A DNA stretch of 64,000 nt, taken from assembly GCF_001447355.1 (NCBI RefSeq), contig NZ_JXBW01000002.1:1-64000 (forward strand), read 5' to 3'. The first letter of the stretch is position 1, and each line of letters begins with the position of its first letter. The DNA is from Alicyclobacillus tolerans (lineage in GTDB: Bacteria > Bacillota > Bacilli > Alicyclobacillales > Alicyclobacillaceae). The position numbers and the translations under genes were made by a program. Below are positions 1 through 51,122 of the stretch, in pieces. The notes beneath the pieces were generated by a model, which was not told where the DNA came from, did not search any database, and saw only the letters and a program-made list of their open reading frames with translations.

Positions 1-1162
1 TGACGAGCTGCCATTCCGACTCCTGCCCCGCGCGCGGATTGACCAGGCAACTCACTGGTTGATACGGCTTGACGAGCGTGTGATCCAAACACGATTGGTT
101 GCAAGCGATACAGACGTTGAGCCCTTGCCGATCCCCTGTGAGGATCTTGCGCGCAAATTCCGCATCCGCCAACCAAGGGCGTGCGGGCGCGATGAAGTCG
201 AGATAGCCGTCGGCCACCAACTGATCCGCCACTTCCGGCACGTTGAGCCGATTGGCGCCAAGCACCGGCACCGACACATGTTGGCGAATGCGCCCGGCAA
301 CCGCCGCAAACCCTCCGCGCGGAACCACCTGCTGCACCGTCGGCACGCGCGACTCGTGCCAGCCAATGCCGATGTTTAACGCATCGACCCCGGCATCCAC
401 CAAGGCCTGCGCAAACCGAATGGTCTCCTCATCCGTCGTGCTATCCGGCATCAAATCCGCACCTGACATCCGAAAGATGATGGGGTATTCGGCCCCGACC
501 GCGGCGCGAACAGCGCGCACGACGTCCAGCGGCATGCGCATCCGCCGTTCGAAATCTCCCCCATACTCGTCGTCGCGCACATTGGTGAGTGGCGACAAGA
601 ACTGATTGAGGAGATAACCTTCGGATCCCATAATTTCAATTGCGTCAAAGCCAATCCGCTTCGCCGTGCTCGCTGCGTTGGCAAAGCCCAAAATCGTGCG
701 CGCAATGTCTTCCGCCGTCATCGCACGCGGCGTCTCTCGCGTCAATCGCGACGGGATTGCGCTCGGGGCCACAGGTTGCATGCCAATCTCGTCAGAAAAC
801 GCATAGCGACCAGCGTGAAACAATTGTAAGGCAATGCGACCTCCGCCCGCATGAACAGCCTCTGGCAACCTGGCGAGCATGTCGATGTGCTCCGGATTCG
901 TGAGCACGTACATCTCGCCACCGCCCTCCGGCAGCACCACGGCACCGCCAGTGATGATAAGTGCCGCCATACCTTCTGCGCGATCGCGATAAAATGTGCA
1001 AAGCCGCTCGATATATTCTGGGTTGCGCTCCAGACCCATGTGCATAGAACCCATCAGGATACGGTGAGGCAGCGTGAGCGAGCCAATCCGTCCGGGTTGA
1101 CGCAAGGCCTCAAACTGGCGCAATACGTTCTGCGGTGCCACCTTCAACACCTCTTCAACCAT
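1..1162 (-). CDS. FadH-like NADH:flavin oxidoreductase / 2,4-dienoyl-CoA reductase (C-terminus cut by window edge)
   Basis: About 387 N-terminal residues are visible: an old-yellow-enzyme TIM barrel followed by the start of the FAD/NAD part. Seen directly: a HAGRY motif, GSEGYLLNQFL (its Tyr matches the FadH catalytic tyrosine), GIGWHESR (its His matches the FadH catalytic histidine) and a Cys cluster CIACNQSC...SCLVNPRA near residue 352 that binds [4Fe-4S] in FadH. The family reduces 2,4-dienoyl-CoA thioesters with NADPH. The ATG at 1162 has no clear SD; a GTG at 1141 preceded by AAGAGGTG is an alternative. It is divergent from the acyl-CoA ligase gene across a promoter region with an operator-like repeat. 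By context it may reduce cyclohexadiene- or cyclohexene-carbonyl-CoA rather than fatty dienoyl-CoA. Enzyme class is secure, substrate is inferred. Confidence 0.85.
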   Translation of the reverse strand, partial: MVEEVLKVAPQNVLRQFEALRQPGRIGSLTLPHRILMGSMHMGLERNPEYIERLCTFYRDRAEGMAALIITGGAVVLPEGGGEMYVLTNPEHIDMLARLPEAVHAGGGRIALQLFHAGRYAFSDEIGMQPVAPSAIPSRLTRETPRAMTAEDIARTILGFANAASTAKRIGFDAIEIMGSEGYLLNQFLSPLTNVRDDEYGGDFERRMRMPLDVVRAVRAAVGAEYPIIFRMSGADLMPDSTTDEETIRFAQALVDAGVDALNIGIGWHESRVPTVQQVVPRGGFAAVAGRIRQHVSVPVLGANRLNVPEVADQLVADGYLDFIAPARPWLADAEFARKILTGDRQGLNVCIACNQSCLDHTLVKPYQPVSCLVNPRAGQESEWQLV

Positions 1163-1228
1163 GGCTTGCGGCGCAACAACCTGTTACCCGCGCATATTCC
1201 CAAGCCATTTTTATAATCTGATATTAAC

Positions 1229-1279
1229 ACCTGGTATTGAATTCGTCGACAAGCGTGCTAGAATGTTTTATAACCAGGT
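1229..1279. promoter_or_regulatory. Divergent promoter region with operator-like inverted repeat
   Basis: A sigma-A-like promoter reads rightward: TTGAAT at 1237-1242, a 16-nt spacer, TAGAAT at 1259-1264. It is bracketed by ACCTGGT (1229-1235) just before the -35 and its perfect complement ACCAGGT (1273-1279) around the expected +1. That placement is typical of a repressor binding two sites. The same region must drive the leftward FadH-like gene. A related motif lies at 11252-11262. The regulator is not in the window. Confidence 0.5.
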
Positions 1280-1311
1280 ACGAATTTCGGAATGAAAGGA
1301 GCGGCGCCACT

Positions 1312-2910
1312 GTGAGCGCTCCGCTGTTTCTCGACAAATTTGACATGTTCCGGGCGCAGAGCCCGAATCAATTGGCTGTTATCGATCTCGCTGGCTCATC
1401 TCCTATTCAATTGACGTATGCCCAATTGGACGAACTCTCCACCCGCGCGGCCATCGGCCTATTACAGCGCGGTGTGCAACCGGGCGATGCAGTCGCCTAT
1501 CAGTTGCCAAGCGGTTGGCCGTTTATTGTCATCACCCTTGGTCTCTGGAAGCTTGGTGCCATTCCCTGCCCGCTCTTGCCTTCCTTGCGCGAACGAGAAG
1601 TGACGTTCATCATGCAGTCTTCCGGCAGCCGCCTCCTCATTGTCCCGGACGAATTTCGACGGTTTGCCTATGTGCAGCTTGTGGATAGAATCCGGCCAGA
1701 ACTGCCCGCGCTGGAACACGTGATTGTAATTGCCCAGCAACAGTACGATCCCGCCGCACACGATCTCGGCGGCATCCTGTGGCAAGGCGAGATATCCGAG
1801 GACATGCTGGCGGAAGTGACACGACGGCGCGCGACGGCGACATCCTACTCACAACTGCTCTACACATCCGGGACGACCGGTGAACCCAAAGGCGTTTTGC
1901 ACACGCACCAAAGCCTGTCAAACGCATTGCTCGCGCATACGACGACACTGGGACTGAGCGCGAGCGACCGCATTTGGGTGCCATCGCCGCTTGCCCACCA
2001 GACAGGATTTCTCTATGGAATGCTCGTTTCCTTCTATATCGGGGGCACGGGCATCTATCAAGCGGTTTGGGACGTCGACACCGCCCGTGCGGCCATCGAA
2101 GTGCATGGCGCGACCTTCGTGCAGGCCGCAATGCCGTTCTTGTCCGATATTACGCGCAGCGCGCAACCGCCAAAGGGTCTGCGCCTGTTTATTGCAACCG
2201 GCGCGGCGATTCCCCGGCAATTGGCGCAAGAAGCCCGCGAAAAGTTGGCTTGCTCCATCGTCGGCGCTTGGGGGTCAACGGAAGCCTGTCTCGTCACCGT
2301 CGGCCGCCCGGACGATCCGCCGGAAAAACTATGGGGTACCGATGGCCGCGCCATCGACGGCATGGAGATCCGCGTCGTCGACGACGAGGGCCATGTTCTC
2401 CCAGCAGGGCGAGAAGGTAACTATCAAATCAAGACGCCGGCGATGTTCGCCACCTACTTGCACCACCATGAGTGGTACGAAGCCGGCTTTACAAAAGACG
2501 GATTTTTTGACACTGGCGATCTCGCCGTGATCGACGAGGATGGTTATTTGAAAATTACCGGACGCAAAAAGGACGTCGTCAATCGCGGCGGTGAGAAGAT
2601 CCCGGTTGTAGAAATCGAAGACTTGCTTTCCCAGCACCCTGCCATCGCGGATGCAGCGGTCGTGGCCATGCCGGACGAACGGCTCGGTGAACGTGCGTGT
2701 GCATACGTCGTGCTGCAACCTGGCCAAGCGGGTATTGACCTGTCGCAAATCACAGACTTTCTCGGCGAACGCGGGATGGCAAAGATTTATTGGCCGGAAC
2801 GGGTCGAGGTCATCGACGAAATGCCTCGCACGGCAAGCGGCAAGATCCAAAAATATGTGTTGCGAAACGACATCGCGAACAAGCTGCAGCAGGAACGCAC
2901 ACAAGCCTAG
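1312..2910 (+). CDS. AMP-forming acyl-CoA ligase, cyclohexanecarboxylate-CoA-ligase-like
   Basis: Predicted 532-residue ANL-superfamily ligase that would activate a carboxylate via the acyl-adenylate to the CoA thioester. The GTG at 1312 is chosen because GAAAGGAG ends 10 nt upstream. Motifs: YTSGTTGEPKG (A3 P-loop), GSTEAC (A5), TGD followed by ITGRKKDVVNRGGEKI (A7/A8 hinge) and RTASGKIQK with the A10 catalytic lysine. The N-terminal part (LREREVTFIM, FRRFAYVQLV) resembles the AliA-type cyclohexanecarboxylate-CoA ligase branch rather than long-chain FadD. It is first in an apparent operon with an acyl-CoA dehydrogenase (22-nt gap) and DAHP synthase. That context suggests a shikimate-derived ring acid as substrate; a 2,3-dihydroxybenzoate- or fatty-acid-type ligase cannot be excluded. 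Confidence 0.87.
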   Translation: MSAPLFLDKFDMFRAQSPNQLAVIDLAGSSPIQLTYAQLDELSTRAAIGLLQRGVQPGDAVAYQLPSGWPFIVITLGLWKLGAIPCPLLPSLREREVTFIMQSSGSRLLIVPDEFRRFAYVQLVDRIRPELPALEHVIVIAQQQYDPAAHDLGGILWQGEISEDMLAEVTRRRATATSYSQLLYTSGTTGEPKGVLHTHQSLSNALLAHTTTLGLSASDRIWVPSPLAHQTGFLYGMLVSFYIGGTGIYQAVWDVDTARAAIEVHGATFVQAAMPFLSDITRSAQPPKGLRLFIATGAAIPRQLAQEAREKLACSIVGAWGSTEACLVTVGRPDDPPEKLWGTDGRAIDGMEIRVVDDEGHVLPAGREGNYQIKTPAMFATYLHHHEWYEAGFTKDGFFDTGDLAVIDEDGYLKITGRKKDVVNRGGEKIPVVEIEDLLSQHPAIADAAVVAMPDERLGERACAYVVLQPGQAGIDLSQITDFLGERGMAKIYWPERVEVIDEMPRTASGKIQKYVLRNDIANKLQQERTQA

Positions 2911-2932
2911 AGCAAAGGAAGGGCGACGAACA

Positions 2933-4096
2933 ATGCAGACGCGAACATTGGCCGATTGGATGGCGGACGTCGATGCTTATGTCGCAGGCCCTGCTGCCGT
3001 GTGGGCGCAAGAGATTGAAGCGACGGGCACCGTGCCACAGGCGGTGTGGGAAGAGTTGAACGATCGCGGCTACTTACGCCTTGCAGCCCCGCGCGATCTC
3101 GGTGGCTACGGCCTCTCCTTTACAGACTATCTGCAGCTACTCGAGAGATTCGCCGCCATGCACGGCTCGCTGCGCGTCATCGTGCATGTCACGAATAGCC
3201 TGTGGCGATCGCTCGCCAGCAAGGCGTCAGCGGAGCAGTTGGAGCGGTTTGTCAAACCGTTTATCGGCGGTCAACTGCGGGCGACGTTTACGTTGACGGA
3301 GCCCAATTCGGGATCTGGAGCAGACATCAAGACCACTGCCCGCCGCGAAGGCGATGAATACATCGTCAACGGCGAGAAGTGGATGATCATCTTCAGCGAT
3401 GTTGCAGATTACTTTCTCTTGTTCTGCCGACTCGAGGGAACGAGTGGCGGTGAAGGCACGTTGGCACTCATGGTGCCCAAAGATGCAGCCGGCCTCGAGA
3501 TAGAATGGATGGCTCCGGCCATGGGCATCACCGGTACCCAGCACGGCCACTTGCGGCTTGTCAATTGTCGTGTGCCCGTCGCCAATCGTCTGGGTGAAGA
3601 AGGCGATGGCCTGGAAGTTGCGTTTCGCGGTTTTCTCGATCCCTCGCGCACTGCAATCGGCATGACGTGCGTCGGCGCGGCCAAACGTAGCCTCGAGTTG
3701 GCGGCGGAACACGCGCTCGCGCGCGTAACCTTTGGGCAACCGCTCGCCAAGCGTCAGATCATCCAGATGTGGCTTGCGGAAATGGCGACGGACATCGAGG
3801 CGGCGCGCCACCTTGTCCTTCATGCTGCCCGCAAGTTCGACGCAGGTCAGCCGATCACGGTGGAAGCGAGTATGGCCAAGATGTTTGCCACGGAGATGCT
3901 GCAGCGGGTCACCGATAAAGCCCTGCAGATCCATGGTGGGCCGGGCTATTTTAAGTCGAGTGAGATCGAACGCTTGTACCGCGATGCGCGGATGCAGCGG
4001 TTTGAAGAAGGAACGTCGGAAATTCAGAAGATGGTGATTGCGCGCGACGTGCTGGACAAGGTGAAGGCGGCGCGTGAAAGGAGAAATCGCGGATGA
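2933..4096 (+). CDS. Acyl-CoA dehydrogenase
   Basis: 387-residue flavin acyl-CoA dehydrogenase. ATG 2933 follows AAAGGAAGGG with good spacing; reading further upstream would overlap the ligase gene. Visible are the FAD/substrate-binding stretch (FTLTEPNSGSGADIKT), the C-terminal helical region with RVTFGQPLAKRQ, an IHGGPGY motif and FEEGTSEIQ near the C-terminus, whose Glu aligns with the catalytic base of medium-chain acyl-CoA dehydrogenase. The family makes an alpha,beta double bond in a CoA thioester and passes electrons to ETF. It sits between a CHC-CoA-ligase-like gene and DAHP synthase, whose start codon overlaps its stop (ATGA). This makes a cyclic substrate on the shikimate to cyclohexanecarbonyl-CoA route plausible; that specific role is inferred. 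Confidence 0.88.
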   Translation: MQTRTLADWMADVDAYVAGPAAVWAQEIEATGTVPQAVWEELNDRGYLRLAAPRDLGGYGLSFTDYLQLLERFAAMHGSLRVIVHVTNSLWRSLASKASAEQLERFVKPFIGGQLRATFTLTEPNSGSGADIKTTARREGDEYIVNGEKWMIIFSDVADYFLLFCRLEGTSGGEGTLALMVPKDAAGLEIEWMAPAMGITGTQHGHLRLVNCRVPVANRLGEEGDGLEVAFRGFLDPSRTAIGMTCVGAAKRSLELAAEHALARVTFGQPLAKRQIIQMWLAEMATDIEAARHLVLHAARKFDAGQPITVEASMAKMFATEMLQRVTDKALQIHGGPGYFKSSEIERLYRDARMQRFEEGTSEIQKMVIARDVLDKVKAARERRNRG

Positions 4097-5106
4097 TTGT
4101 CATGCTGAACCCGAAGCACAATCAGCAACTGTTGGCACAATCCTTGGCCGAACTCGGCGTGACCGCCTACCCTGCGGGTGCCAATCGGGTCATGATTGCT
4201 GGTAACGACGCCGATTTGGCGAATCGCCTGGCCCAACTGCCCGAGGTGCTGGAAGTCGTCCCCGTCGCGCGCCCTTACCCACTCGCCAGCCGCGAGTTCC
4301 AGCAGGAAGACACCGTCATTCAGGTACGCGACGTCGTCATTGGCGGATCGAAACCGGTCGTAATGGCTGGTCCATGTTCTGTCGAGTCGGTCGAGAATAT
4401 CGTCGACATCGCGAAGGCGGTCAAGCGCCTGGGTGGCCATGTGTTGCGTGGCGGCGCCTTTAAACCGCGTTCGAGCCCGTATTCGTTCCAGGGTCACGGC
4501 GAAGAGGGACTCAAGATGATGGCCATGGCGCGCGAGATCACTGGGCTCGCCATCGTCTCGGAAGTGATGGAGCCGGACAAAGTTGCGCTCGTATCGGAGT
4601 ATGTCGACATTCTCCAGATTGGTGCGCGCAACATGCAGAACTACCCCTTGTTGCGCGAAGCGGGCAAGTCGATGAAGCCTGTGCTTCTCAAGCGCGGCCT
4701 GTCGGGAACGATTGAGGAATGGCTGATGGCTGCCGAATACATCTTGGCACAAGGCAACCCCAACGTTATTTTGTGCGAACGAGGTATCCGCACGTTTGAA
4801 ACGGCGACGCGCAATACACTCGACCTCAATGCCGTACCGGTGGTCAAAAGCCTTACTCATCTGCCGGTTATTGTCGATCCGTCGCATGGCGTCGGCAAGC
4901 GTGCGTTCGTCCGTCCAATGGCACGTGCAGGTGTGGCAGCTGGGGCTGACGGCGTGATCGTCGAAATTCACCCGACACCGGATCAAGCGATGTCCGACGC
5001 GGCGCAGACGATCGATTATCAAGAATTCGGGCTGATGGTAGAGGAGATTAATCGGATCTCGGATGTGTTACACGGCACCCGTGAAAAAACGGTTGTCGGC
5101 GTTTGA
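4093..5106 (+). CDS. aroF: 3-deoxy-7-phosphoheptulonate (DAHP) synthase, type I-beta with N-terminal regulatory domain
   Basis: 337 residues. The first ~70 residues form the ferredoxin-like regulatory domain found in the Thermotoga-type enzyme; the remainder is the TIM barrel with [43 protein letters not shown] and [10 protein letters not shown], which carry the PEP, erythrose-4-phosphate and metal ligands. It makes the first intermediate of the shikimate pathway. Its ATG overlaps the stop of the acyl-CoA dehydrogenase as ATGA, indicating translational coupling. A shikimate-pathway entry enzyme tied to CoA-ester chemistry is unusual and suggests local supply of shikimate rather than only aromatic amino acid synthesis. 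The regulatory domain suggests feedback control by an aromatic amino acid, as in that enzyme family. Confidence 0.93.
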
Positions 5107-5128
5107 CAAGCCGAAGGCTTTCTAAGCT

Positions 5129-5177
5129 GTAAAGGGGGCAGGCTGCAATATGAGTGGTAGCAGCATGCCCTCTTTAC
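5129..5177 (+). terminator. Long imperfect hairpin downstream of aroF
   Basis: The arm at 5129-5146 pairs with 5160-5177 over 18 positions with two mismatches, around a 13-nt loop. No T-run follows, so it is not a classical intrinsic terminator; it may protect the mRNA 3' end or act on the antiporter leader. The rest of 5178-5399 shows no gene and no riboswitch that I recognise. Confidence 0.35.
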
Positions 5178-5399
5178 ATCATGGGCATCTATGTCTTTTG
5201 GTTGATTTCCCACCTGCCGTTCACGTACCATAAGTAAGGAGCCACCCTTGAGAGCGCAAAATCATGCTTGCCACGGGGTGAAGCTTTCACTCACAGGTAT
5301 GTTTCGTGCTCAGACTATCCCCTGTCTCTACTAGAGCGTGCCACTTGCTTCAATCTGTTCACTCTAAAATGTCAAAACTTTATATCAAAGGAGGAGAAG

Positions 5400-6875
5400 A
5401 TGGGGTACTTCCTCTTGTTGCTGTCCTTCATTTTACTAGCTGGCGTTTGGTCTGCTCGCGTCGGAACCCGCTTAGGCTTTCCGGTTCTTATCGGTTTTGT
5501 CGCCATCGGCATGCTGCTAGGACCGAGCGGCCTGCATGTGAGTCCGAAAGTCCCGCTGTCTGTCGCGCAATCCATCGGTTACGTCGCGCTCATCCTCATC
5601 CTGTTTGAGGGCGGATTGCATACCCCTGCAGCGAGAATTCGCAACGTGTGGAAACCTGCTATATCGCTCGCTACGGTCGGTGTCCTTGTCAGCTCGGCTA
5701 TCATGACAGCCATTTCTCACTACTTGCTCAAGTTGCCGTTCTTCCCCTCCGCATTACTTGGGGTCGCCGTCAGTTCGACAGATGCCGCATCGGTGTTTTC
5801 CATACTTGGAGGCCAACCACTCCGTCGACGCCTCGTCGATGTCCTCGAAGTTGAATCGGGCACCAACGTCCCGATGGCATTCTTTCTCACGATTGTCTTA
5901 ATGCAATGGTCTATCCACGGATTCGGCACCGTTGAGCAAGCGGCCTGGTATGTCATCGGTACCTTAGCCTTGCAAATGCTAGTTGGTTTGGCTGTCGGCT
6001 TGCTCGCAGGCTATCTTGGCTCGCTCGCCAATCAACGTATTAAATTGGATACCGGCGGACTGTATCCGACGTTAACGCTGGCATTTGCGCTTTCCTCCTA
6101 CGCTGGCGCCGCTCTGCTACATGGCAGTGGATTTCTGGCAGTCTACGTCGCGTCGGTCGTCATGGGCAACCGCAAGCTTGAACATCGCTACAGTATCATG
6201 CGCTTCCACGAAGGACTGTCATGGACGATGCACATTGTCATGTACGTCGTGCTCGGCCTTCAGATGTCGCCTGCTCGCCTTTGGGCAATTCTCTTGCCGG
6301 GAATGGGCCTGGCCGTAAGTGTCCTAGCCATAGCCAGACCGGCGGCCGTCTGGCTATCCACCATCGGAATGGGCTACACCCGCACAGAGAAAGTCTTTAT
6401 ATCCTGGGCGGGCTTGCGTGGAGCCGTTCCCATCGTTTTAGTGCTCACGGCCATCCTGTCGCCCACGTACACGCCTGCGACCATGCTCGATGCTGTGTTC
6501 TTCGTCGTGATCGCCTCCACATTGTTACAGGGATTGACCGTCAAACCGCTGGCGCAAAAGCTTGGCTTGTTTGAATCGTCGCCGTCCGAAGGGTTGTTGG
6601 AACTGGTGGCCATCGCGCGTGAACACGCTGTTGTGATGCCGATTGAAATTCCAGAGGAGTCTGACTTGGTGCACAAAAAGATGGTCGAAATTCAGTTCCC
6701 GCAGAATACGCTTTGTTACGCTATTATTCGCGATAGCCAGGTCATCGTGCCGCGCGGCGCAACCAAGCTCCAAGCGGGAGATCATCTACTCGTGCTATCG
6801 GATCGCCGCCACATCCCAGACTTGCGCAGATTGTTCCGTGCAGGACAAGTCGGTCAACCCGGCTTCTTGCCTTAA
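5400..6875 (+). CDS. CPA1-family K+(Na+)/H+ antiporter with C-terminal TrkA-C domain
   Basis: 491 residues. ATG 5400 is preceded by AAAGGAGG at optimal spacing; upstream in-frame codons lack an SD. About 12 hydrophobic segments span residues 1-400, including FPVLIGFVAIGMLLGPSGL and SSTDAASVFSIL, the conserved cation-site helix of the NhaP/CvrA family (Thr-Asp). LRGAVPIVL is the other conserved motif of this family. Residues ~420-485 form a TrkA-C/RCK-C regulatory domain, which in NhaP2-like proteins senses small ligands. The family exchanges monovalent cations for protons and so controls pH and osmotic balance, which matters in an acidophile. The MFS gene follows with a TAATG overlap, so the two are probably co-transcribed. 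Confidence 0.88.
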   Translation: MGYFLLLLSFILLAGVWSARVGTRLGFPVLIGFVAIGMLLGPSGLHVSPKVPLSVAQSIGYVALILILFEGGLHTPAARIRNVWKPAISLATVGVLVSSAIMTAISHYLLKLPFFPSALLGVAVSSTDAASVFSILGGQPLRRRLVDVLEVESGTNVPMAFFLTIVLMQWSIHGFGTVEQAAWYVIGTLALQMLVGLAVGLLAGYLGSLANQRIKLDTGGLYPTLTLAFALSSYAGAALLHGSGFLAVYVASVVMGNRKLEHRYSIMRFHEGLSWTMHIVMYVVLGLQMSPARLWAILLPGMGLAVSVLAIARPAAVWLSTIGMGYTRTEKVFISWAGLRGAVPIVLVLTAILSPTYTPATMLDAVFFVVIASTLLQGLTVKPLAQKLGLFESSPSEGLLELVAIAREHAVVMPIEIPEESDLVHKKMVEIQFPQNTLCYAIIRDSQVIVPRGATKLQAGDHLLVLSDRRHIPDLRRLFRAGQVGQPGFLP

Positions 6876-9153: not shown

Positions 9154-9915
9154 CTAACGTTTAAACGACAAAGCCCCGTCGTCAACGAAGTAGGCATGCC
9201 CATTGAGGAAAGACGCTTCGTCGCTCGCGAGAAACGCCACGACCTGCGCAACCTGCTCCGGCGTGCCCAGCTTGCGGCGCATGTGCGCCTTTTGAATCGT
9301 GTTCCACACGCGCTCATCCGCCCGCCAAGCATCGACCAACCCTGTGTCGATCATCCCCGGTGCAATGGCCACCACCCGGATATTGTAGCGTGCGAGTTCC
9401 AAGGCGGCCGCCTTCGTCATGCCGACGACCGCCGCCTTGCTCGCGTGATACGGAAACTGGTTTCTATCCGCAATATAGGCATAAATCGAGGCTGTGTTGA
9501 TGATGACGCCGCCGCGCTCGCGCATCCGTGCCGCCGCCGCGCGAATGCCGTAGTAGACGCCGTGCTGATTAATGGCAATCGTCCGATGATAGGTCTCCAT
9601 CGGCATGTCGATCACGTTTTGCAATCCGTCACCAAACACACCAGCATTGTTAAACATGATATCGAGTTGGCCATAGGTATCCATGGCAAACTGTACGAGC
9701 GCTTCGACGCTCTCGTAAGCGATCACGTCCACACGGCAAAACGACGCTTCACCGCCCTTTGCACGAATTTCGGCCGTCACCTTGGCCCCGGCCGCCTCGT
9801 CAATGTCGGCGACGACGACCTTGGCCCCTTGCTCGGCCAACAATCGCGCACTCGCGCCGCCAATACCTCCTGCTCCGCCTGTCACGATGGCGACGCGCCC
9901 GTCGAATCGATTCAC
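9154..9915 (-). CDS. Short-chain dehydrogenase/reductase (classical SDR)
   Basis: 253 residues. Rossmann motif TGGAGGIG at 12-19, NNAG at 89-92 and the catalytic set Ser143, Tyr156, Lys160 (YHASK) are all present, so it should be an active NAD(P)-dependent alcohol dehydrogenase/ketoreductase of the FabG/3-hydroxyacyl-CoA type. Its GTG start overlaps the stop of the upstream thioesterase (GTGA), so translation is probably coupled. It lies in a three-gene leftward unit with a thioesterase and a FabL-like reductase, which points to acyl-CoA or acyl-ACP substrates. It could serve as a ring-hydroxyl dehydrogenase in a shikimate-to-cyclohexanecarbonyl-CoA route, but that is inference. Confidence 0.87.
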   Translation of the reverse strand: MNRFDGRVAIVTGGAGGIGGASARLLAEQGAKVVVADIDEAAGAKVTAEIRAKGGEASFCRVDVIAYESVEALVQFAMDTYGQLDIMFNNAGVFGDGLQNVIDMPMETYHRTIAINQHGVYYGIRAAAARMRERGGVIINTASIYAYIADRNQFPYHASKAAVVGMTKAAALELARYNIRVVAIAPGMIDTGLVDAWRADERVWNTIQKAHMRRKLGTPEQVAQVVAFLASDEASFLNGHAYFVDDGALSFKR

Positions 9916-10319
9916 ACCGCATCCCCCTGTTCGTAACTCATCAAAGCCGTCCGCCAGTGCTCAGGTACCGGACATGGAGTTCCGGCCTCATCGACGTGGA
10001 CATAGATGGATTGCGCTTCGAAAATCAGTTCGTCCTGCCTCGTGATCGCAAAGTCGAGGACGATGCTTGTATTGCCGATGTGATGGGTCCGCACCCAAAT
10101 CGATAAATCGTCCTCAAACCGCGCCGACTTATGATACTGCAAGGTCGACTTGGCGAGCACGGTTGTGGGAATCTCGCCGTATAGCTTGAGTTCATGGCGG
10201 AAGAATTGTTGAAACGCGAGATCGAGATACATCAAATAATTTGCGTTATACACGATTAACTGGCCATCCACCTCAGGCCAGCGCACGCGGATGTCGTAGT
10301 GAAATCGAAAACCCTCCAA
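9912..10319 (-). CDS. Hotdog-fold acyl-CoA thioesterase (YbgC/4-HBT type)
   Basis: 135 residues from a TTG start with AGGAGAGG spaced 6 nt upstream. The N-terminal VRWPEVDGQLIVYNANYLMYLDLAFQQFF region is the 4-hydroxybenzoyl-CoA thioesterase active-site helix, with Asp in the usual catalytic position followed by the Y-N-A-N-Y-L stretch. The second half matches the beta-sheet of the hotdog fold. The family hydrolyses short or aromatic acyl-CoA esters. It overlaps the SDR gene by 4 nt and follows the FabL-like gene, so it probably edits or releases acyl thioesters in the same pathway. Confidence 0.85.
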   Translation of the reverse strand: MEGFRFHYDIRVRWPEVDGQLIVYNANYLMYLDLAFQQFFRHELKLYGEIPTTVLAKSTLQYHKSARFEDDLSIWVRTHHIGNTSIVLDFAITRQDELIFEAQSIYVHVDEAGTPCPVPEHWRTALMSYEQGDAV

Positions 10320-10356: not shown

Positions 10357-11130
10357 TCACGGTATCGGCAAGGTAATACCGCCGTCGATGCGAATGGTCT
10401 GGCCGCGGATCATCTCAGCTTCCGGCGAACAAAGGAACAAGGCCAGGTTTGCGATGTCGTCCGGCGTCACCATGCGATGATACGGCATCTTCTCTTCCAC
10501 CGCCGCCAACGTCTTGTCCATCTCCGGAAAATGACCAAGCGCATCGGTCAGCACCGCACCCGCCGAGATGGCATTGACATTGATCCGGCGCGGCGCCAGT
10601 TCGATCGCAAAATAACGGACAATCGATTCGAGCGCCGCCTTGCTCGATCCCACGGACACATAATACGGAAAGACGCGATCCGCCCCAAACGAAGACAGGG
10701 CCAACATGGCACCGCCTGTCTCCGGCATCAGATTCGCGGCCTGCTGGGCCCCAATGAGAAACGCCCGCGTGTTGACCTGTATCGTCCAATCCCAGCCCTT
10801 GGTGTCGACCTCCATCGCAGAGCGATTGCGACCCGACGCCGCGTTATGGACGAAGACGTCGATCCGCCCAAAAGCCTCGCGAATTTGTTCAAACATGGCG
10901 ACGACCTTTTCCTCCTGCGCCATGTTGGCGCGAACCAACAAGGCCTTGCGCCCCAATGCCTCAATCTCCGCCGCAACCTCGCGCGCTTGATCCCCGTTTC
11001 GGAAATAGTTGATGACGACGTCCGCGCCCTCCTCGGCAAAGCGCACAGCAAGCCTGCGGCCAATGCCGCGCGAACTTCCCGTGACGCAGACGACTCGATT
11101 CTGATAGCGATTGCCTGACGGTTGTCCCAT
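10357..11130 (-). CDS. fabL: FabL-type enoyl-ACP (or enoyl-CoA) reductase
   Basis: 257 residues; TGSSRGIG (17-24), VHNAASG (95-100), WDWT (113-116) and a Tyr157-x6-Lys164 pair. The Tyr-x6-Lys spacing marks SDR enoyl reductases, and the NAASG/WDWT/DALGHFPE/MIRGQTI pattern closely follows Bacillus subtilis FabL. It should reduce trans-2-enoyl thioesters with NADPH. An alternative given the surroundings is a role like ChcA, the 1-cyclohexenylcarbonyl-CoA reductase of omega-cyclohexyl fatty acid producers, also an SDR. It is divergent from a beta-ketoacyl synthase, supporting fatty acid elongation or priming. Confidence 0.85.
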   Translation of the reverse strand: MGQPSGNRYQNRVVCVTGSSRGIGRRLAVRFAEEGADVVINYFRNGDQAREVAAEIEALGRKALLVRANMAQEEKVVAMFEQIREAFGRIDVFVHNAASGRNRSAMEVDTKGWDWTIQVNTRAFLIGAQQAANLMPETGGAMLALSSFGADRVFPYYVSVGSSKAALESIVRYFAIELAPRRINVNAISAGAVLTDALGHFPEMDKTLAAVEEKMPYHRMVTPDDIANLALFLCSPEAEMIRGQTIRIDGGITLPIP

Positions 11131-11321: not shown

Positions 11322-12581
11322 ATGGCGGAAAAGACGCGCATCGTCGTCACCGGAATGGGTGCCGTTACGCCATTCGGGGTCGGGGTAACCACGTTCTGGG
11401 ATGGCATTGTAGGGGGCAAATCGGCTGTGCGGCAGACCGAAGACGAGTATCTTCGCAGCTGGGCCCCGGTCGTCGCCGCGGCGCACGATTTTGATCCAAC
11501 GCTGTACCTTGACAAGAAGCAAATTCAAAATAGTGATCGATTCACGCAGATGGGGCTTGTCGCCGCCATGGAGGCCATTCGCGACGCAGGACTTGGCGAG
11601 AGCGGCGAATTCGCAGCGTATGCCATGGACCGCATTGGAATTTCTGTTGGCTGTGCATTCGGTGGCGTCCAAACGCTGGAGGACGGCTCGGCGCGTTTGT
11701 CATCCGGGAGATCGTCGCGCGTCGGCCCGCGCCTGGTGCCAAAATCGATACCGAATGCGGCGGCAGCCGGCATCGCCATGCGCTATGGCATCCGCGGCCC
11801 GGTGATGACCTATTCGACCGCCTGTGCATCGTCCGCCAACGCGATTGGCGAGGCAAGCTATTGGCTGCGCTTGGGCGAGGTCGACATGGTGCTTGCAGGG
11901 GGTGCGGAGTGCTTATTCAGTCCGGCCATTCTGGCAGGACTGCGGGCAGCTGGTGCGCTCGCGACGGAGGGGCCCGCGTCGTTCTCCGCCTGGTCGCGGC
12001 CATTCGATAAAGCACGTACGGGCATGGTCATGGGCGAGGGTGCGGCGATGCTCGTGCTCGAGACGTTCGAGAGCGCACAGGCCCGGGGTGCCCATATCTA
12101 TGCGGAGCTGACTGGGTATGGTTCGTCCAACGACGCCTACCATGAAACCTCGCCCGATCCGACCGGACGCGGCGCAAAGTTAGCCATTGAGCGCGCGCTC
12201 AAAAGCGCGGGGCTCAACCCTACGGACATCGACTATATCAACGCCCACGCCACAGCGACGCCTGCGGGCGATCTCGCCGAATCGACCGCATTGCGTGAGA
12301 CGTTCGGCGATCACATCGACGTCATCCCTGTGAGTTCTATCAAAGGGGCGGTCGGACACATGTTGGGAACTGCTGGCGCCATCGAAAGCATCGCCTGCAT
12401 TAAAGCGCTGGAGACCGGCATGCTCCCGCCGACTCTAAACTGTGACGACAAGGAGGAGTTTGCTCCTCGCGACGTGGTGGCTAACGAGAGCCGTGCGGCC
12501 GACATTGCGACGGCACTGAGCTCGTCTTTCGGCTTTGGCGGCCAAAACGGTGTGCTCATTTGGCAGAAAACATCGTTCTAA
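11322..12581 (+). CDS. Beta-ketoacyl-[ACP] synthase II-type (FabF-like)
   Basis: 419 residues; ATG 11322 follows AGAGGAG. The Cys-His-His triad of KAS I/II enzymes is complete: Cys168 in STACASS, His309 in INAHATAT, His346 in GHMLG, with Lys341 before it. It should condense malonyl-ACP with an acyl-ACP. Placement beside a FabL-like reductase, a ketoreductase-like SDR and a thioesterase, away from a recognisable core fab operon, suggests a dedicated extra synthase. In this organism group an omega-alicyclic acyl chain is an attractive substrate, but nothing in the sequence proves chain preference. Confidence 0.88.
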   Translation: MAEKTRIVVTGMGAVTPFGVGVTTFWDGIVGGKSAVRQTEDEYLRSWAPVVAAAHDFDPTLYLDKKQIQNSDRFTQMGLVAAMEAIRDAGLGESGEFAAYAMDRIGISVGCAFGGVQTLEDGSARLSSGRSSRVGPRLVPKSIPNAAAAGIAMRYGIRGPVMTYSTACASSANAIGEASYWLRLGEVDMVLAGGAECLFSPAILAGLRAAGALATEGPASFSAWSRPFDKARTGMVMGEGAAMLVLETFESAQARGAHIYAELTGYGSSNDAYHETSPDPTGRGAKLAIERALKSAGLNPTDIDYINAHATATPAGDLAESTALRETFGDHIDVIPVSSIKGAVGHMLGTAGAIESIACIKALETGMLPPTLNCDDKEEFAPRDVVANESRAADIATALSSSFGFGGQNGVLIWQKTSF

Positions 12582-42217: not shown

Positions 42218-43579
42218 TCAGACCAAGAATGCTTGGCGTGATCGCAATAAGGCAAAAGCCGCCGCCTCGCCGCTACGCACCGCCCCTTCGAGACAGGCAG
42301 GCCAGTCTGTGCGCGTCCAATCCCCGGCCAAGAAGAGGCCTGTCATGGGCGTCACCGGTTGCGGGCGCAAATGCCATGTACCAGGTTCGGCGAGAAACGT
42401 CGCCTTCGGCTGCCAAACGACTTTCGCGGCAAGCAGTTTGGCATCGCGTGCGTCTTTGCACGCTTTGCCGATGGCATCTTGCACGCCGCGGATAATTTCT
42501 TGATGCGTCCAATCGCGGAATCGATCCGCAGCCGAGATCGAAACGGATAACCAGCGCCCGTCTTGTCCCGAATCGGGCAGCAAGCGACCGCGGTTAAACA
42601 CGAACATGCCATCAAAGTCGGTCGCGGCAAACACGTCCTCGGCCAAAACTTGACGGTCATAGTTGAGAAACACATTGAGGATGGGGCTCCAACGCAATTT
42701 TGCAATGCCGCGAAACGGCTCTTTTCCTGCCCAGTCGTCTGGCAACATACGGAGTAAAGCATCATGTGGAACCGTGGAAACGACTTGCTCCGTCGCGACG
42801 AACGAACCGTCGCGCAGAGCTAGACCACACACCTTGTTCTCTGCAACCTGCACTCGTTCCACATACGTCGAATAGCGGATGGTCACGCCCCGTGCAACCA
42901 AGCGATCGATGGCGTCGCGTGCGAGATCGCCAAGGGGCCGCGTAAACAAGCCTAGCCGCGCGGGCTGCCACCCACGCATAAAGCCGATGTGAAACGAATG
43001 GGCGGCCAAACCAGCACTGATCTCACCAGCGTGGCCGTTTAAAATCGCCGTCCCAACCAAATCCCACACCAAACGAATGGCTGTATCCGATTGTCCTGTG
43101 GTCTGAAGCCACTTGGCGAAACTTACGGCATCCAGCTTTTCGGCCCGTGGTCGCATAAAGGCGAGCGCACCCGCAAGCGTCGACACGCGCTCGCTCGGAG
43201 ACAAGTGCCCGTAAGCCAACAGCGCGGGCAACAAATGCAACGGCCCTACAAGGCGTCTGCTGGCGATGCGATACATCTGCCCATCGTGGTAGACAGGAAT
43301 GTCAAGCAAAGGCTGCAGCCGATAGCCGCTACGTACGTCGAGGTGCTTCAACAACGCAATGAATCGATCACAGCACCCCAACAGCACGTGTTGACCGTTG
43401 TCCAATGCGAGTCCAGTTTCGCGATCGACAAAGGAAAACGCGCGCCCTCCTGGATAGGGCGTGCGTTCGAGTAGCACAATGCGCTTAGGATCTATGCCCT
43501 TGGATAGTAAGGCCTCGGCAGTTGCAATCCCTGCCCATCCCGCACCGATGATGACTATACTGTCGCTGATGCGTTCCAT
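42218..43579 (-). CDS. hpnE: Hydroxysqualene dehydroxylase
   Basis: 453 residues of the FAD-dependent phytoene-desaturase-like amine oxidase fold. Dinucleotide motif IVIIGAGWAGIATAE, then LERTPYPGGRAFSF and DNGQHVLLGCC, and a C-terminal FLAGDWTRTDWPACLEGAVRSGEAAA FAD motif. In the HpnCDE route it reduces hydroxysqualene to squalene. The ATG at 43579 overlaps the end of hpnD by 25 nt; a GTG at 43591 is possible. Last gene of the hopanoid run. Confidence 0.92.
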   Translation of the reverse strand: MERISDSIVIIGAGWAGIATAEALLSKGIDPKRIVLLERTPYPGGRAFSFVDRETGLALDNGQHVLLGCCDRFIALLKHLDVRSGYRLQPLLDIPVYHDGQMYRIASRRLVGPLHLLPALLAYGHLSPSERVSTLAGALAFMRPRAEKLDAVSFAKWLQTTGQSDTAIRLVWDLVGTAILNGHAGEISAGLAAHSFHIGFMRGWQPARLGLFTRPLGDLARDAIDRLVARGVTIRYSTYVERVQVAENKVCGLALRDGSFVATEQVVSTVPHDALLRMLPDDWAGKEPFRGIAKLRWSPILNVFLNYDRQVLAEDVFAATDFDGMFVFNRGRLLPDSGQDGRWLSVSISAADRFRDWTHQEIIRGVQDAIGKACKDARDAKLLAAKVVWQPKATFLAEPGTWHLRPQPVTPMTGLFLAGDWTRTDWPACLEGAVRSGEAAAFALLRSRQAFLV

Positions 43580-44415
43580 AACACACCCCACACCAAGCGC
43601 AATTTACGCGAACTGGATAACGCAATTCGGCGATCAAACACATTGAACCGACTCTCTTCTATCTTCGTCAATAATTCGCGATACATGAGAAACAGCATGC
43701 GCAAACAGCGAAGACTGTCCTCCTCAACCAGCGGGAACAGCCCTTTGGCTCGTTCATAGTACATCTCAGCCCGCTCGGCCTGCTCGCGCATCAGCGCCAG
43801 AAAGCCAGGCGTCAGACGTTTTAATCGTAGATCGTCAATCGTATAACCATGCCTGGCGAGCTCTTCAGAAGGCAAATACACGCGATCGCGCTCGATGTCC
43901 TCGCCAAGATCGCGAAGGATGTTGGTCAACTGCAACGCGCGCCCCATGTCCCGCGCCAAGGAAAGGGCTTTGGGATCGCGATAGCCAAAAATGTGGACAC
44001 ACATGATGCCGACCGTTCCTGCAACGTAGTCGCAGTATTGTTCAAGCTCCGCCATGGTTTGCAGGCGAACCGCGCGCATATCGATACGCATGCCCTGCAC
44101 CATATCGTGAAACGGCTGTATGGGGAGTTGAAACCGCCGGACGGCGTCGCCCAATGCCAAGACGACCGGATGGTCTGAGCTTTGATAGCCGTCGGCAAAG
44201 GCTTGCTCGACGATGTGTTCCGCCATCGCGAGATGCGCCTCGGCTTCCTCACCCTCGTAGTCATCGACTGCGTCGTCGCAAATGCGACTCCAGGCATAAA
44301 TCGCGTACATCGCGAGGCGCTTGTGTATAGGCAAAAGACGCATGCCGGAATAAAACGAGCTTCCAGCTTGGCGGGTCAGCTTTGTGCAGTGTTGATAGGC
44401 CTGGTCGATGTTCAT
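43555..44415 (-). CDS. hpnD: Presqualene diphosphate synthase
   Basis: 286 residues from ATG 44415, overlapping the hpnC stop as ATGA. Trans-isoprenyl head-to-head synthase fold: first Asp-rich motif CDDAVDDYE (Asp47, Asp48, Asp51, Asp52), second NILRDLGEDIERDRVYLP. It condenses two farnesyl diphosphates to presqualene diphosphate. The longer upstream reading frame is inside hpnC and not used. Confidence 0.93.
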   Translation of the reverse strand: MNIDQAYQHCTKLTRQAGSSFYSGMRLLPIHKRLAMYAIYAWSRICDDAVDDYEGEEAEAHLAMAEHIVEQAFADGYQSSDHPVVLALGDAVRRFQLPIQPFHDMVQGMRIDMRAVRLQTMAELEQYCDYVAGTVGIMCVHIFGYRDPKALSLARDMGRALQLTNILRDLGEDIERDRVYLPSEELARHGYTIDDLRLKRLTPGFLALMREQAERAEMYYERAKGLFPLVEEDSLRCLRMLFLMYRELLTKIEESRFNVFDRRIALSSSRKLRLVWGVLWNASATV

Positions 44416-45293
44416 CCGGGAGCCACCCCTCGTTGCGCGAAGCCCATGAAGGCTCGCATCGCAATACGTAGCTTTTGGCCGCTTGTCACCACCGGTCGAC
44501 GTACAAACGGATCGTAATTTTGGCGGCGCAACGCTTCCAGAACAGCTTCGCCGCCGAGCCGATAAAGGCGCAACTGTAGCCCGAGTCGCTGCGGCACCAA
44601 ACGCTCCAGGCGAGCCCCCTGTGTAAACCACTCGGCTGTGCGCTCGACCTCAAACTTGATGCAGGCACGCACACCATCTGTCATTCGAGCCTGGCGGATA
44701 TCTTCCAAAGAGGCCCCGAATGACTCGAGATCCGCCTTCGGTACATAAATCCTACCATTCTTCAAATCGCGATGAATATCTTGAAGGTGATTCGCGACTT
44801 GTAAGGCTGTGCATGTGTAATCGGACAATGCGGCACGCTCCTCGTCGCAGCAGCCAAAGACGCCAAGCACGAGACGGCCCACGGGATCCGCCGAATACCG
44901 GCAATAATCCCGCAGGTCGTCCCAGGTCTCGTATGTCGCTTGGCGCTGATCTCGCCGATTGGCTTCAATCAGACGCAGGAACGGATCCATCGGCAGCCCG
45001 CACGCTTCGATCGTGTGTTGCAAGGCTCGAAAAACGGGCGTCTGCGGCGTGCCACCGTACGCTCGCCGCAGTTCTTCTTCGTACGCATCGAGGGCCGCCA
45101 GCCGATCCCCTTTCAGTTCGTCACCGAGATCGTCCACGCCGCGACAAAATGCATAAATAGAACAAAAGTGCGGACGAAGCTCGCGCGGGACAAAGAGCGA
45201 GACGACTGAAAAGTTCTCGTAATGACTGGCCGTCAAGCGCGCACACACCTCGAAATCAGCTCGCAAACCGACTGGGACCGACTGCATCGCCAT
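44412..45293 (-). CDS. hpnC: Hydroxysqualene synthase
   Basis: 293 residues, squalene/phytoene synthase fold. First Asp motif VDDLGDE (Asp54, Asp55), second ANHLQDIHRDLKNGRIYVP. HpnC converts presqualene diphosphate to hydroxysqualene, between HpnD and HpnE. Its ATG shares one base with the shc stop (TAATG), so the shc-hpnC-hpnD-hpnE genes form a coupled chain. Confidence 0.93.
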   Translation of the reverse strand: MAMQSVPVGLRADFEVCARLTASHYENFSVVSLFVPRELRPHFCSIYAFCRGVDDLGDELKGDRLAALDAYEEELRRAYGGTPQTPVFRALQHTIEACGLPMDPFLRLIEANRRDQRQATYETWDDLRDYCRYSADPVGRLVLGVFGCCDEERAALSDYTCTALQVANHLQDIHRDLKNGRIYVPKADLESFGASLEDIRQARMTDGVRACIKFEVERTAEWFTQGARLERLVPQRLGLQLRLYRLGGEAVLEALRRQNYDPFVRRPVVTSGQKLRIAMRAFMGFAQRGVAPG

Positions 45294-47194: not shown

Positions 47195-47222
47195 CCGACA
47201 ACCCCCTTACACGTCAGTTCTG

Positions 47223-48224
47223 TCATTTCGAGACAGGCGCCATACCCGCTTCGCGAAACCATGTAATCGCCCGACGCAATGCGTCTTCGACCGAGGACTG
47301 CGGCATGCCGAGTTCCTGCACGGCTTTTGTCGCGTCAAAATACATTGGTTCCCGTGCCAGTTTGACACCTGCCACCGGCGCCCGTGGAGCCCGGCGCAAC
47401 AAGCGCGACAACATGTAGTCGTCCACCACAGCCACCGACATGGCGACCCAGAACGGGATTTTTGCCCGCGGCGCGCGGCGACCAGAGAGGCGCGCCACCA
47501 TGGCGACAAGATCGCCAAAGTGCATATTGCGATGGCCAAGAATATAGCGCTCGCCGCGCCGCCCACGCTCATAGGCAAGGAGATGACCCAAGGCGACATC
47601 CTCCACAGCGACTAAGTTCAGCCCTGTTTCGACGTATGCAGGCATCCGTCCAAGCATCGTGTCGAGGACAATTCGCCCTGTGGGCGTCGGCTTCACGTCG
47701 TACGGTCCGACCGGTGTCGACGGATTGACGATCACGATGTCCATGCCTGACGCCGCCGCATCCATCGCCAGTCGTTCCGCTAGCACCTTCGTTTTTTTGT
47801 ACGTACTGTACACCTTGTCCGGATCGTTAAAACCGTCCTCTTCCGTCGCCGGCTTTCCGTCGTGCCGCAACTTCACGGCAGCGGTCGAGCTGGTATAGAC
47901 GAGCCTTGGCCCGCCCGCGCGGCGCACGGCGTCGATTAGCCTGCGCGTCCCCTCGACGTTCGCCGCGTACATCACAGCGTCATCCCGGCGATCCAGCGAG
48001 TAGTGTGCGGCCACGTGAAAGACGGCATCAGAGCCGCGCACCGCCGCCTCAATGCCCGCGCCTGTCGCGAGATCGCCTACGCAAACGTCTGCGCCAAGGG
48101 CGATAAGCGGCTGCGCCCGCACGGGATCGCGCACGAGCGCCCGCACCTTGTGCCCGCGTTCGCGCAAAGCGGCGACGACATGGTAGCCGACAAATCCTGT
48201 GCCTCCTGTCACCAGCGCAAGCAC
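47223..48224 (-). CDS. hpnA: Hopanoid-associated NAD-dependent sugar epimerase/dehydratase
   Basis: 333 residues from GTG 48224 with GGGAGGG 6-7 nt upstream; the frame stays open much further but that part is antisense-like and overlaps hpnG. VTGGTGFVGYHVV is the Rossmann motif, YTSSTAAV plus YSTYKKTK provide the Ser/Tyr/Lys set, and LVAVEDVALGHLLAYERG is typical of HpnA. It belongs to the extended SDR family found in hpn clusters; its exact substrate is not established. It overlaps hpnG by 16 nt. Confidence 0.88.
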   Translation of the reverse strand: MLALVTGGTGFVGYHVVAALRERGHKVRALVRDPVRAQPLIALGADVCVGDLATGAGIEAAVRGSDAVFHVAAHYSLDRRDDAVMYAANVEGTRRLIDAVRRAGGPRLVYTSSTAAVKLRHDGKPATEEDGFNDPDKVYSTYKKTKVLAERLAMDAAASGMDIVIVNPSTPVGPYDVKPTPTGRIVLDTMLGRMPAYVETGLNLVAVEDVALGHLLAYERGRRGERYILGHRNMHFGDLVAMVARLSGRRAPRAKIPFWVAMSVAVVDDYMLSRLLRRAPRAPVAGVKLAREPMYFDATKAVQELGMPQSSVEDALRRAITWFREAGMAPVSK

Positions 48225-48841: not shown

Positions 48842-48847
48842 TTTTCG

Positions 48848-49858: not shown

Positions 49859-49965
49859 CCTAATCCCCTCCTAGTCAATCCGCTTCGACGAATGAGAAGA
49901 TAGAAATGAATCCTGTCTGAGGGAACAATATCCCATATTCGGGGTCAGAAGCAAATTCCGGGCAA

Positions 49966-51078: not shown

Positions 51079-51122
51079 GTTCCGTCTCCTTCTTTCTGTC
51101 GCGAACAGGGCCGCAGCCGTGC

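What the first reader, a model, noticed from the sequence alone, without database searches (positions are those of the whole stretch)
1..5106. Candidate operon for cyclohexanecarbonyl-CoA (omega-cyclohexyl fatty acid starter) made from shikimate
Seen: FadH-like reductase, a CHC-CoA-ligase-like ANL enzyme, acyl-CoA dehydrogenase and DAHP synthase grouped around one divergent promoter. Known: Alicyclobacillus membranes contain omega-cyclohexyl fatty acids whose starter derives from shikimate through CoA activation, dehydrations and enoyl reductions, and the Streptomyces collinus ansatrienin route uses a ligase, an acyl-CoA dehydrogenase, a dienoyl-reductase-like enzyme and ChcA. Inference: this block is the Bacillota version, with its own shikimate-pathway entry enzyme.
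Basis: partly seen in the sequence, partly recalled or inferred. Interest (0 to 1): 0.82.

Follow-up and report, generated by a model that had tools for sequence, protein, structure and literature searches.

The report
Shikimate-to-cyclohexyl membrane-lipid starter genes
The genes look like the set with which acid- and heat-loving Alicyclobacillus bacteria turn shikimate into the six-membered ring at the tip of their unusual membrane fats, using the same enzyme kit that some Streptomyces use to start antibiotics.

Summary
In detail: a truncated FadH-like reductase, an acyl-CoA ligase (LIG1), an acyl-CoA-dehydrogenase-family protein (ACAD1) and a DAHP synthase flank one divergent region. The window starts at a contig end; the rest of FadH, a ChcA-like reductase (SDR) and a second module lie at the end of contig C1. 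Ten of 392 sampled genomes of a genus taken to be Streptomyces carry AroA-like, ligase, ACAD, SDR in this order, FadH in 8 of 10, matching the order printed for phoslactomycin cyclohexanecarboxyl-CoA genes (PMC5852498). Four of 396 Actinomycetota genomes have AroA-LIG1-ACAD1-SDR. ACAD1 is in 24 of 59 genomes of the order and in none of 298 other sampled Bacillota. Eight of eight carriers with an entry in the phenotype review contain omega-cyclohexane fatty acids. New: all Alicyclobacillus sensu stricto neighbourhoods read lack the dedicated AroA-like enzyme and have a DAHP synthase; a second ligase/ACAD module with FabL often travels along. No enzyme was assayed.

The parts
2..1162 (-). FadH-like NAD(P)H:flavin enoyl/dienoyl-CoA reductase (PlmM-like), N-terminal 387 aa; the gene is cut by the contig start and the rest is at L035:18277-19092
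   Evidence: nearest solved structure E. coli 2,4-dienoyl-CoA reductase 1ps9 (with the intact sister protein)
1163..1311 (.). divergent intergenic region; one sigma-70-like match TTGAAT-16-TAGAAT at 1237-1264 (+), none found on the - strand here
   Evidence: consensus matches only: 5 found in 1000-5500 against 2.2 expected
1312..2910 (+). LIG1, acyl-CoA ligase, candidate shikimate (or shikimate-derived ring acid) CoA ligase, ortholog of the ligase part of the Streptomyces-type AroA-ligase protein
   Evidence: 48% identity to L208
2933..4096 (+). ACAD1, acyl-CoA-dehydrogenase-fold flavoprotein (plmL-like), with non-canonical RFEEGT and HGSxRxxxHxxNxxW motifs
4093..5106 (+). second DAHP synthase of the genome, entry enzyme of the shikimate pathway
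9154..9915 (-). SDR3, FabG-like reductase with YxxxK motif; lies beside DAHPS or ACAD1 in other genera
9912..10319 (-). 4HBT-type acyl-CoA thioesterase, found next to SDR3 in most loci read that far
10357..11130 (-). FabL enoyl-ACP reductase (374.7 bits, cut-off 328); beside ZnADH of module B in other genera and in two Actinomycetota loci
11322..12581 (+). FabF-like beta-ketoacyl-ACP synthase II (TIGR03150 455.8 bits, under its 493.75 cut-off); a 67% identical copy lies beside module B in L153 (Actinomycetota), a 65% one in L045

Best explanation
The block is part of a gene set that converts shikimate to cyclohexanecarboxyl-CoA (CHC-CoA), the starter of omega-cyclohexyl fatty acids. Inferred steps: the extra DAHP synthase feeds the shikimate pathway; LIG1 makes the CoA thioester of shikimate or an early ring acid; ACAD1 removes a ring hydroxyl or shifts double bonds on the thioester; FadH reduces ring dienoyl-CoA; the FabL-like SDR (ChcA-like, at the end of contig C1) reduces ring enoyl-CoA, ending in CHC-CoA. 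By formula, shikimate to CHC needs loss of three waters and four two-electron reductions. A FabH (not examined) would load CHC-CoA, and the linked FabL, FabF and SDR3 would elongate it. Shown here: gene content, order, orthology, distribution, motifs. Inferred: substrates, order of steps, product.
For: Same four families in the same order as plmJK-plmL-chcA-plmM (PMC5852498 Table 2) in 10 of 392 sampled genomes of a genus taken to be Streptomyces (FadH in 8 of 10 loci), with ACAD1 at 532-565 bits against at most 293.5 for the next. ACAD1 clade of 17 Alicyclobacillaceae + 10 Streptomyces-type + 3 Actinomycetota rows, SH-aLRT 99; LIG1 clade of 29 rows, 100. Cluster FadH of these Streptomyces does not group with ordinary Streptomyces FadH (p-AU 3.3e-7). 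Shikimate-pathway genes are in the block: DAHPS beside ACAD1 in 16 of 19 evaluable neighbourhoods, an AroA-like gene beside LIG1 in 5 of 20 and in the actinobacterial loci. One Streptomyces-type locus abuts a modular polyketide synthase. SDR has the YxxxxxxK spacing of FabL. 24 of 59 genomes of the order, 0 of 298 other sampled Bacillota. A. acidocaldarius (chromosome length = G002:C1) has about 51% and 33% omega-cyclohexane C17:0 and C19:0.
Against: No enzyme, mutant or labelling result was produced. No NCBIfam equivalog cut-off for a CHC enzyme is met. The grouping of the Alicyclobacillus SDR with the Streptomyces-type SDRs is unresolved (supports 45 and 61; one clade not rejected, p 0.58; in L205 the SDR even scores slightly nearer to FabL, 202 against 195 bits), and the FadH clade has support 46. 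The AroA-like protein found in all 14 actinobacterial loci read is missing here, so a step may differ. No FadH lies near in the four non-Streptomyces actinobacterial loci. A fifth Actinomycetota genome (G178, 42%) has no such operon. Genomes without the cluster could not be named, so the negative half of the phenotype test is not done.
Confidence: 0.85

Rival explanations
1. A catabolic operon for a ring acid (cyclohexanecarboxylate, quinate or shikimate), run in the oxidative direction.
For: LIG1's best NCBIfam hit is cyclohexanecarboxylate-CoA ligase and ACAD1 hits cyclohexanecarbonyl-CoA dehydrogenase models; the nearest relatives outside the ACAD1/ACAD2 clades among the tree rows, at 45%, lie beside a thiolase, an MFS transporter and a ligase on Rhodococcus plasmids.
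Against: All those models score far under their cut-offs; a biosynthetic DAHPS or an AroA-like protein sits in the block in most genomes read; no ring-cleavage, crotonase or thiolase family came up among the cluster genes put to family searches (the rest of the genome was not searched for them); an ortholog set abuts a polyketide synthase in L213.
Confidence: 0.07
2. Ordinary fatty acid beta-oxidation genes (FadD, FadE, FadH) beside an unrelated DAHP synthase.
For: LIG1, ACAD1 and FadH belong to families with beta-oxidation members.
Against: ACAD1 lacks the usual IYEGT and ITN motifs and forms its own clade with its cluster mates across phyla; 0 of 298 other sampled Bacillota have it, although the listed ones gave ACAD-like candidates.
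Confidence: 0.03
3. A CHC-CoA-like pathway that serves another end product (for example a secondary metabolite or an omega-cycloheptyl lipid) rather than omega-cyclohexyl fatty acids.
For: Several Streptomyces-type orthologs sit beside polyketide-type genes; strains in PMC10562698 were reported with both cyclohexyl and cycloheptyl acids (passages).
Against: Eight of eight carriers with an entry in the review are omega-cyclohexane species; FabL, FabF, SDR3 and a thioesterase are linked; no polyketide synthase came up among 29 window proteins examined.
Confidence: 0.05

Closest known systems
Streptomyces CHC-CoA starter genes of phoslactomycin (plmJK, plmL, chcA, plmM) and, by recall, ansatrienin and asukamycin
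   Same: Same four enzyme families; same order ligase-ACAD-SDR-FadH in the Streptomyces-type loci read; identities of the A. hesperidum cluster proteins to those loci 44-48% (ligase), 50-55% (ACAD), 41-45% (SDR), 43-46% (FadH, 8 loci).
   Different: In Alicyclobacillus the set is split around a divergent region, mostly has a DAHP synthase, lacks the AroA part in the neighbourhoods read of the window's genus, and is linked to fatty acid synthesis genes. The plm sequences themselves were not compared.
Cyclohexanecarboxylate degradation (aliA/aliB, bad genes)
   Same: Same superfamilies of ligase and acyl-CoA dehydrogenase.
   Different: Scores far below the equivalog cut-offs; biosynthetic neighbours.
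E. coli 2,4-dienoyl-CoA reductase FadH (1ps9)
   Same: Full-length match of the sister FadH, E 1.1e-157.
   Different: Placed in a ring-acid operon; groups with the Streptomyces-type cluster copies (support 46 only).
FabL enoyl-ACP reductase (3oic)
   Same: Nearest solved structure of the ChcA-like SDR (E 4.4e-58); same YxxxxxxK motif.
   Different: 255.7 bits, under the FabL cut-off of 328; a separate FabL above the cut-off is at window 10357-11130.

Membership tests
Streptomyces-type shikimate-to-CHC-CoA pathway | ligase, ACAD, ChcA-type SDR and FadH-type reductase encoded together | tested here: met
   LIG1-ACAD1-FadH in 20 of 20 neighbourhoods read; an SDR beside FadH in 19 of 19 where the contig goes on (for the window genome on contig C1)
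Streptomyces-type shikimate-to-CHC-CoA pathway | orthology of ligase and ACAD to the Streptomyces-type operon members | tested here: met
Streptomyces-type shikimate-to-CHC-CoA pathway | SDR orthologous to ChcA | tested here: inconclusive
   41-45% identity and enoyl-reductase motif, but one-clade grouping unresolved; ChcA itself not compared
Streptomyces-type shikimate-to-CHC-CoA pathway | dedicated EPSP-synthase-like (AroA) protein or domain in the operon | tested here: not met
   absent from the window genome (one AroA only) and from 15 of 20 Alicyclobacillaceae neighbourhoods; present in 5 of 20. Whether this feature is required is unknown, so the filing is as a variant
Streptomyces-type shikimate-to-CHC-CoA pathway | conversion of shikimate to CHC-CoA | not testable with these tools
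   needs enzymes or labelling
Cyclohexanecarboxylate degradation (aliA/aliB) | TIGR03208 and TIGR03207 / NF043006 equivalog cut-offs | tested here: not met
   467.6 of 792.3; 156.7 of 575.35; 216.1 of 650 bits
omega-cyclohexyl fatty acid producers | cluster carriers contain omega-cyclohexane fatty acids | tested here: met
   8 of 8 carriers with an entry in the passages of PMC5023266 seen; five further named carriers have no entry in what I saw
omega-cyclohexyl fatty acid producers | species without these acids lack the cluster | not tested

The most novel reading that the evidence does not exclude
The membrane-lipid version is a distinct variant: in Alicyclobacillus sensu stricto the EPSP-synthase-like enzyme, present in all 14 actinobacterial loci read, is gone, so the step it serves must be done another way or not at all. 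In addition a second module (LIG2-ACAD2-ZnADH-FabL, with FabF beside it in some genomes), sister to LIG1-ACAD1, forms a dedicated lipid-building set exchanged between Alicyclobacillaceae and Actinomycetota, and it predicts omega-alicyclic lipids in the four unnamed Actinomycetota.
Probability: 0.45. Interest if true: 0.72.

Novelty: new variant of a known kind. Interest (0 to 1): 0.62.

Why it matters
Omega-cyclohexyl fatty acids gave Alicyclobacillus its name, and their origin from shikimate is in the title of a 1972 paper (seen only as a reference; not held). Among what five searches of the held library listed (one search listed 30 of 145) I saw no paper that names a gene cluster for them in Alicyclobacillus; one Sulfobacillus paper says such genes were identified, without naming them in the passage seen (PMC4378227). 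Subscription journals are mostly not held, so it may be in print elsewhere. If right, the trait becomes testable by deletion or transfer, juice-spoilage strains can be typed for it, and the role of these lipids in acid and heat tolerance can be tested directly. The absence of the AroA-like enzyme in a high producer bears on what that enzyme does in Streptomyces.

Tried and rejected
Rejected: beta-oxidation and ring-acid catabolism (see rivals). Module B as a necessary part: A. cellulosilyticus (omega-cyclohexane in the review) has no ACAD2 ortholog in a 94% complete draft (best match 41%), the ten Streptomyces-type genomes have none either (best 40-41%), and G018 and G029 have module B without an ACAD1 ortholog; so B is accessory or separate. 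A second DAHP synthase as a marker by itself: several cluster-negative genomes also have two or more, so only adjacency counts. Led nowhere: plasmid searches for Streptomyces CHC clusters (generic FadH and Rhodococcus ACADs came up); search for a paper on omega-cyclohexyl lipids in acidophilic actinobacteria (15 of 27 listed, the word cyclohexyl in none of these); the roughly 200-aa protein beside ZnADH (no family; model pLDDT 79 but no PDB match at E <= 0.001); Rfam and tRNA scans of the window (none).

Rows dropped: hits under 70% of query length, and all but four hits per locus and family, were left out of the trees; overlapping weaker hits were hidden, and short weak ones. Four of the 24 ACAD1-positive genomes (G003, G004, G005, G014) were not read around the gene. 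The Actinomycetota, Streptomyces-type and Bacillota sets are samples drawn by the tool (396, 392 and 299 genomes) and in them at most 3 to 6 best candidates per genome were scored, so a weak ortholog could be missed. One search kept 80 of 222 relatives and did not list A. acidocaldarius or A. acidoterrestris, so a name missing there is no evidence of absence. The LIG tree has few outgroup rows.
Full report
What is there. The window is bases 1-64000 of contig C12 of a 2.81 Mb draft genome. ACAD1 is 98% identical to that of Alicyclobacillus hesperidum DSM 12489. The four genes of the finding exist at the stated places. FadH is cut by the contig start; its C-terminal part (residues 396-671 of the sister protein) lies at the end of contig C1 (L035), followed outward by an SDR, LIG2, ACAD2, a zinc alcohol dehydrogenase and a protein of unknown family. 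The sister genome L033/L053 shows the whole block on one contig: orf225, ZnADH, ACAD2, LIG2, SDR, FadH on one strand, then LIG1, ACAD1, DAHPS on the other.

Two modules. Module A is SDR-FadH | LIG1-ACAD1(-DAHPS). I read 20 of the 24 Alicyclobacillaceae genomes that have ACAD1: LIG1, ACAD1 and FadH are adjacent in 20 of 20, SDR beside FadH in 19 of 19 where the contig goes on (for the window genome on contig C1), DAHPS beside ACAD1 in 16 of 19 evaluable (not in G026, G028, G034; G037 cut by a contig end). Module B is LIG2-ACAD2-ZnADH-FabL; LIG2, ACAD2 and ZnADH adjoin module A in the neighbourhoods read of the window's genus (for the window genome on C1), but lie about 58 kb or 1.6 Mb away in G036 and G040, on other contigs in G033 and G034, and occur without an ACAD1 ortholog in G018 and G029. 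The window's FabL (10357-11130) belongs to this second set: it is 66-75% identical to a gene beside ZnADH in other genera, and L153 (Actinomycetota) reads LIG2-ACAD2-ZnADH-FabL with FabF on the other strand beside it, at 58, 68, 38, 70 and 67%. SDR3 (window 9154-9915), mostly with a 4HBT thioesterase, lies beside DAHPS or ACAD1 in several genera.

Link to a known pathway. PMC5852498 (passages and Table 2 seen) lists the phoslactomycin genes plmJK (AMP-dependent synthetase and ligase), plmL (short-chain-CoA dehydrogenase), chcA (cyclohexenylcarbonyl-CoA reductase) and plmM (NADH:FMN oxidoreductase) and speaks of six genes for the cyclohexanecarboxyl-CoA starter. PMC12593393 (one passage) calls PlmM a flavin-dependent enoylreductase of that route. 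With an ACAD1 profile, 10 of 392 sampled genomes of one genus gave 532-565 bits, the next best 293.5. I take the genus to be Streptomyces from genome sizes (5.5-11.3 Mb among those listed) and because the centre genome's FadH (L161) groups with that of Streptomyces fungicidicus (L136). All 10 loci carry an AroA-like domain, LIG1, ACAD1 and SDR in that order, and 8 of 10 FadH next. AroA and ligase share one frame of 1003-1113 aa in the three loci listed (domains shown for one), and the AroA frame is 997-1127 aa long in all six such genomes tested, which fits the joint name plmJK. One locus abuts a KR-ACP-KS-AT-KR polyketide synthase (L213); another (L210) has a DegT aminotransferase, a Gfo/Idh oxidoreductase and a class II DAHP-synthase-like gene under the family cut-off, which by recall is what an aminohydroxybenzoate (ansamycin) cluster such as ansatrienin has. 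I did not compare the plm or ans sequences themselves.

A third group. Of 396 sampled Actinomycetota, five matched at E <= 1e-80. Four (G130, G141, G152, G162; 2.8-3.6 Mb, unnamed) have ACAD1 at 56-61% identity in AroA-LIG1-ACAD1-SDR loci (L156, L152, L157, L154); AroA of two is TIGR01356 above cut-off. The fifth, G178 at 42%, has no such operon. All four have an ACAD2 ortholog at 67-68%; module B was read in two (L153, L155). In the LIG2 tree the actinobacterial rows nest inside Alicyclobacillaceae, which suggests transfer.

Trees. ACAD1 rows (17 Alicyclobacillaceae, 10 Streptomyces-type, 3 Actinomycetota) form one clade, SH-aLRT 99, with ACAD2 as sister (88); LIG1 (29 rows) 100, with LIG2 as sister (90, few outgroups). 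So the two ligase-ACAD pairs look like an old duplicated pair (inference). FadH of the clusters: one clade of 22 rows with support 46 only, but grouping the Streptomyces-type cluster copies with ordinary Streptomyces FadH is rejected (p-AU 3.3e-7). SDR: Alicyclobacillus and actinobacterial rows are not shown to be one clade, nor rejected (p-AU 0.58).

Distribution. In a Bacillota sample, none of the 298 other genomes. PMC5023266 (passages with part of Table 1) gives omega-cyclohexane fatty acids for hesperidum, sacchari, acidiphilus, fastidiosus, sendaiensis, cellulosilyticus, acidocaldarius and acidoterrestris: 8 of 8. The other five named species have no entry in what I saw.

Mechanism. Shikimate C7H10O5 to cyclohexanecarboxylate C7H12O2 needs loss of 3 H2O and 4 two-electron reductions. 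Candidates: LIG1 for CoA activation; FadH for dienoyl and SDR for enoyl reduction (SDR shows YxxxxxxK as in FabL, SDR3 the ordinary YxxxK). ACAD1 keeps a glutamate at the usual catalytic place but in RFEEG(T/P) instead of IYEGT, with HG(S/T)xRxxxHxxNxxW and I(I/T)F where others have ITN; with no net oxidation in the route, I favour a flavin-held elimination or double-bond shift over a plain dehydrogenation (inference). From memory, a recent paper describes a shikimoyl-CoA synthetase and a FAD-dependent dehydratase in CHC-CoA synthesis; it was not found in the held library, so it is not used as evidence.

The missing AroA. A dedicated AroA-like gene sits between FadH and LIG1 in 5 of 20 Alicyclobacillaceae neighbourhoods (G019 A. 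mengziensis, G033, G034, G036, G040) and is 45-51% identical to the one of G141. G000, G002, G004, G009, G026, G027 and G028 have one AroA only, at 28-31%. The dedicated form has PxSKYHxHRAL and GSxGxxxxF where a solved EPSP synthase has PGSKSVSNRAL and GNAGTAMR, so it may no longer act on the usual substrate (inference). Its absence from A. acidocaldarius, with about 84% omega-cyclohexane acids (51 + 33), says that the route can run without it, if module A is the route.

Limits. The phenotype link is by species name and review, not by strain. Draft assemblies hide neighbours. Sampled searches score few candidates per genome. Function rests on homology and gene order.

Noticed in passing
window 42218-53195: Hopanoid-type genes lie in the same window: squalene-hopene cyclase (45293-47194), an epimerase-family protein (47223-48767, HpnA-like by recall), a flavin amine oxidoreductase (42218-43591) and DXP synthase (51123-53195), so two acid-membrane lipid loci lie within about 50 kb.
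   Followed up: partly
L036, L038, L042, L046, L048 (between FadH and LIG1); L152, L154, L156, L157; L205-L214: An EPSP-synthase-like protein with altered active-site motifs (PxSKYHxHRAL, GSxGxxxxF) goes with these operons and shares one frame with the ligase in the Streptomyces-type loci checked. G796 has a second such copy on another contig (49%).
   Followed up: partly
L153, L155 and G018/G029 (L044, L045): Module B (LIG2-ACAD2-ZnADH-FabL, FabF beside it in L153 and L045) is shared between Alicyclobacillaceae and Actinomycetota (LIG2, ACAD2, FabL 58-70%, ZnADH about 40%) and occurs without an ACAD1 ortholog in two genomes; its substrate is unknown.
   Followed up: partly
L053:324-998 (-), L035:12404-13069: A conserved protein of about 200 aa with no Pfam or NCBIfam match, seen next to ZnADH only in Alicyclobacillus sensu stricto among the loci read; predicted helical N-terminus and beta C-terminus, no PDB match at E <= 0.001.
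   Followed up: partly
L050:4405-5112: In the MAG G037 the FadH-LIG1 gap holds an extra 235-aa ORF that looks like an inserted endonuclease-type gene (by eye only).
   Followed up: no
L040 (A. cellulosilyticus): Two ACAD1-type genes, 62% and 73% identical to the sister's ACAD1, lie 5.5 kb apart.
   Followed up: no
L133:8148-11372, L134:8107-11352: Rhodococcus plasmids carry an SDR-ACAD-thiolase set facing an MFS-ligase-quinone oxidoreductase set; the ACAD (45%) is the closest relative outside the ACAD1/ACAD2 clades among the tree rows and may belong to ring-acid catabolism.
   Followed up: no
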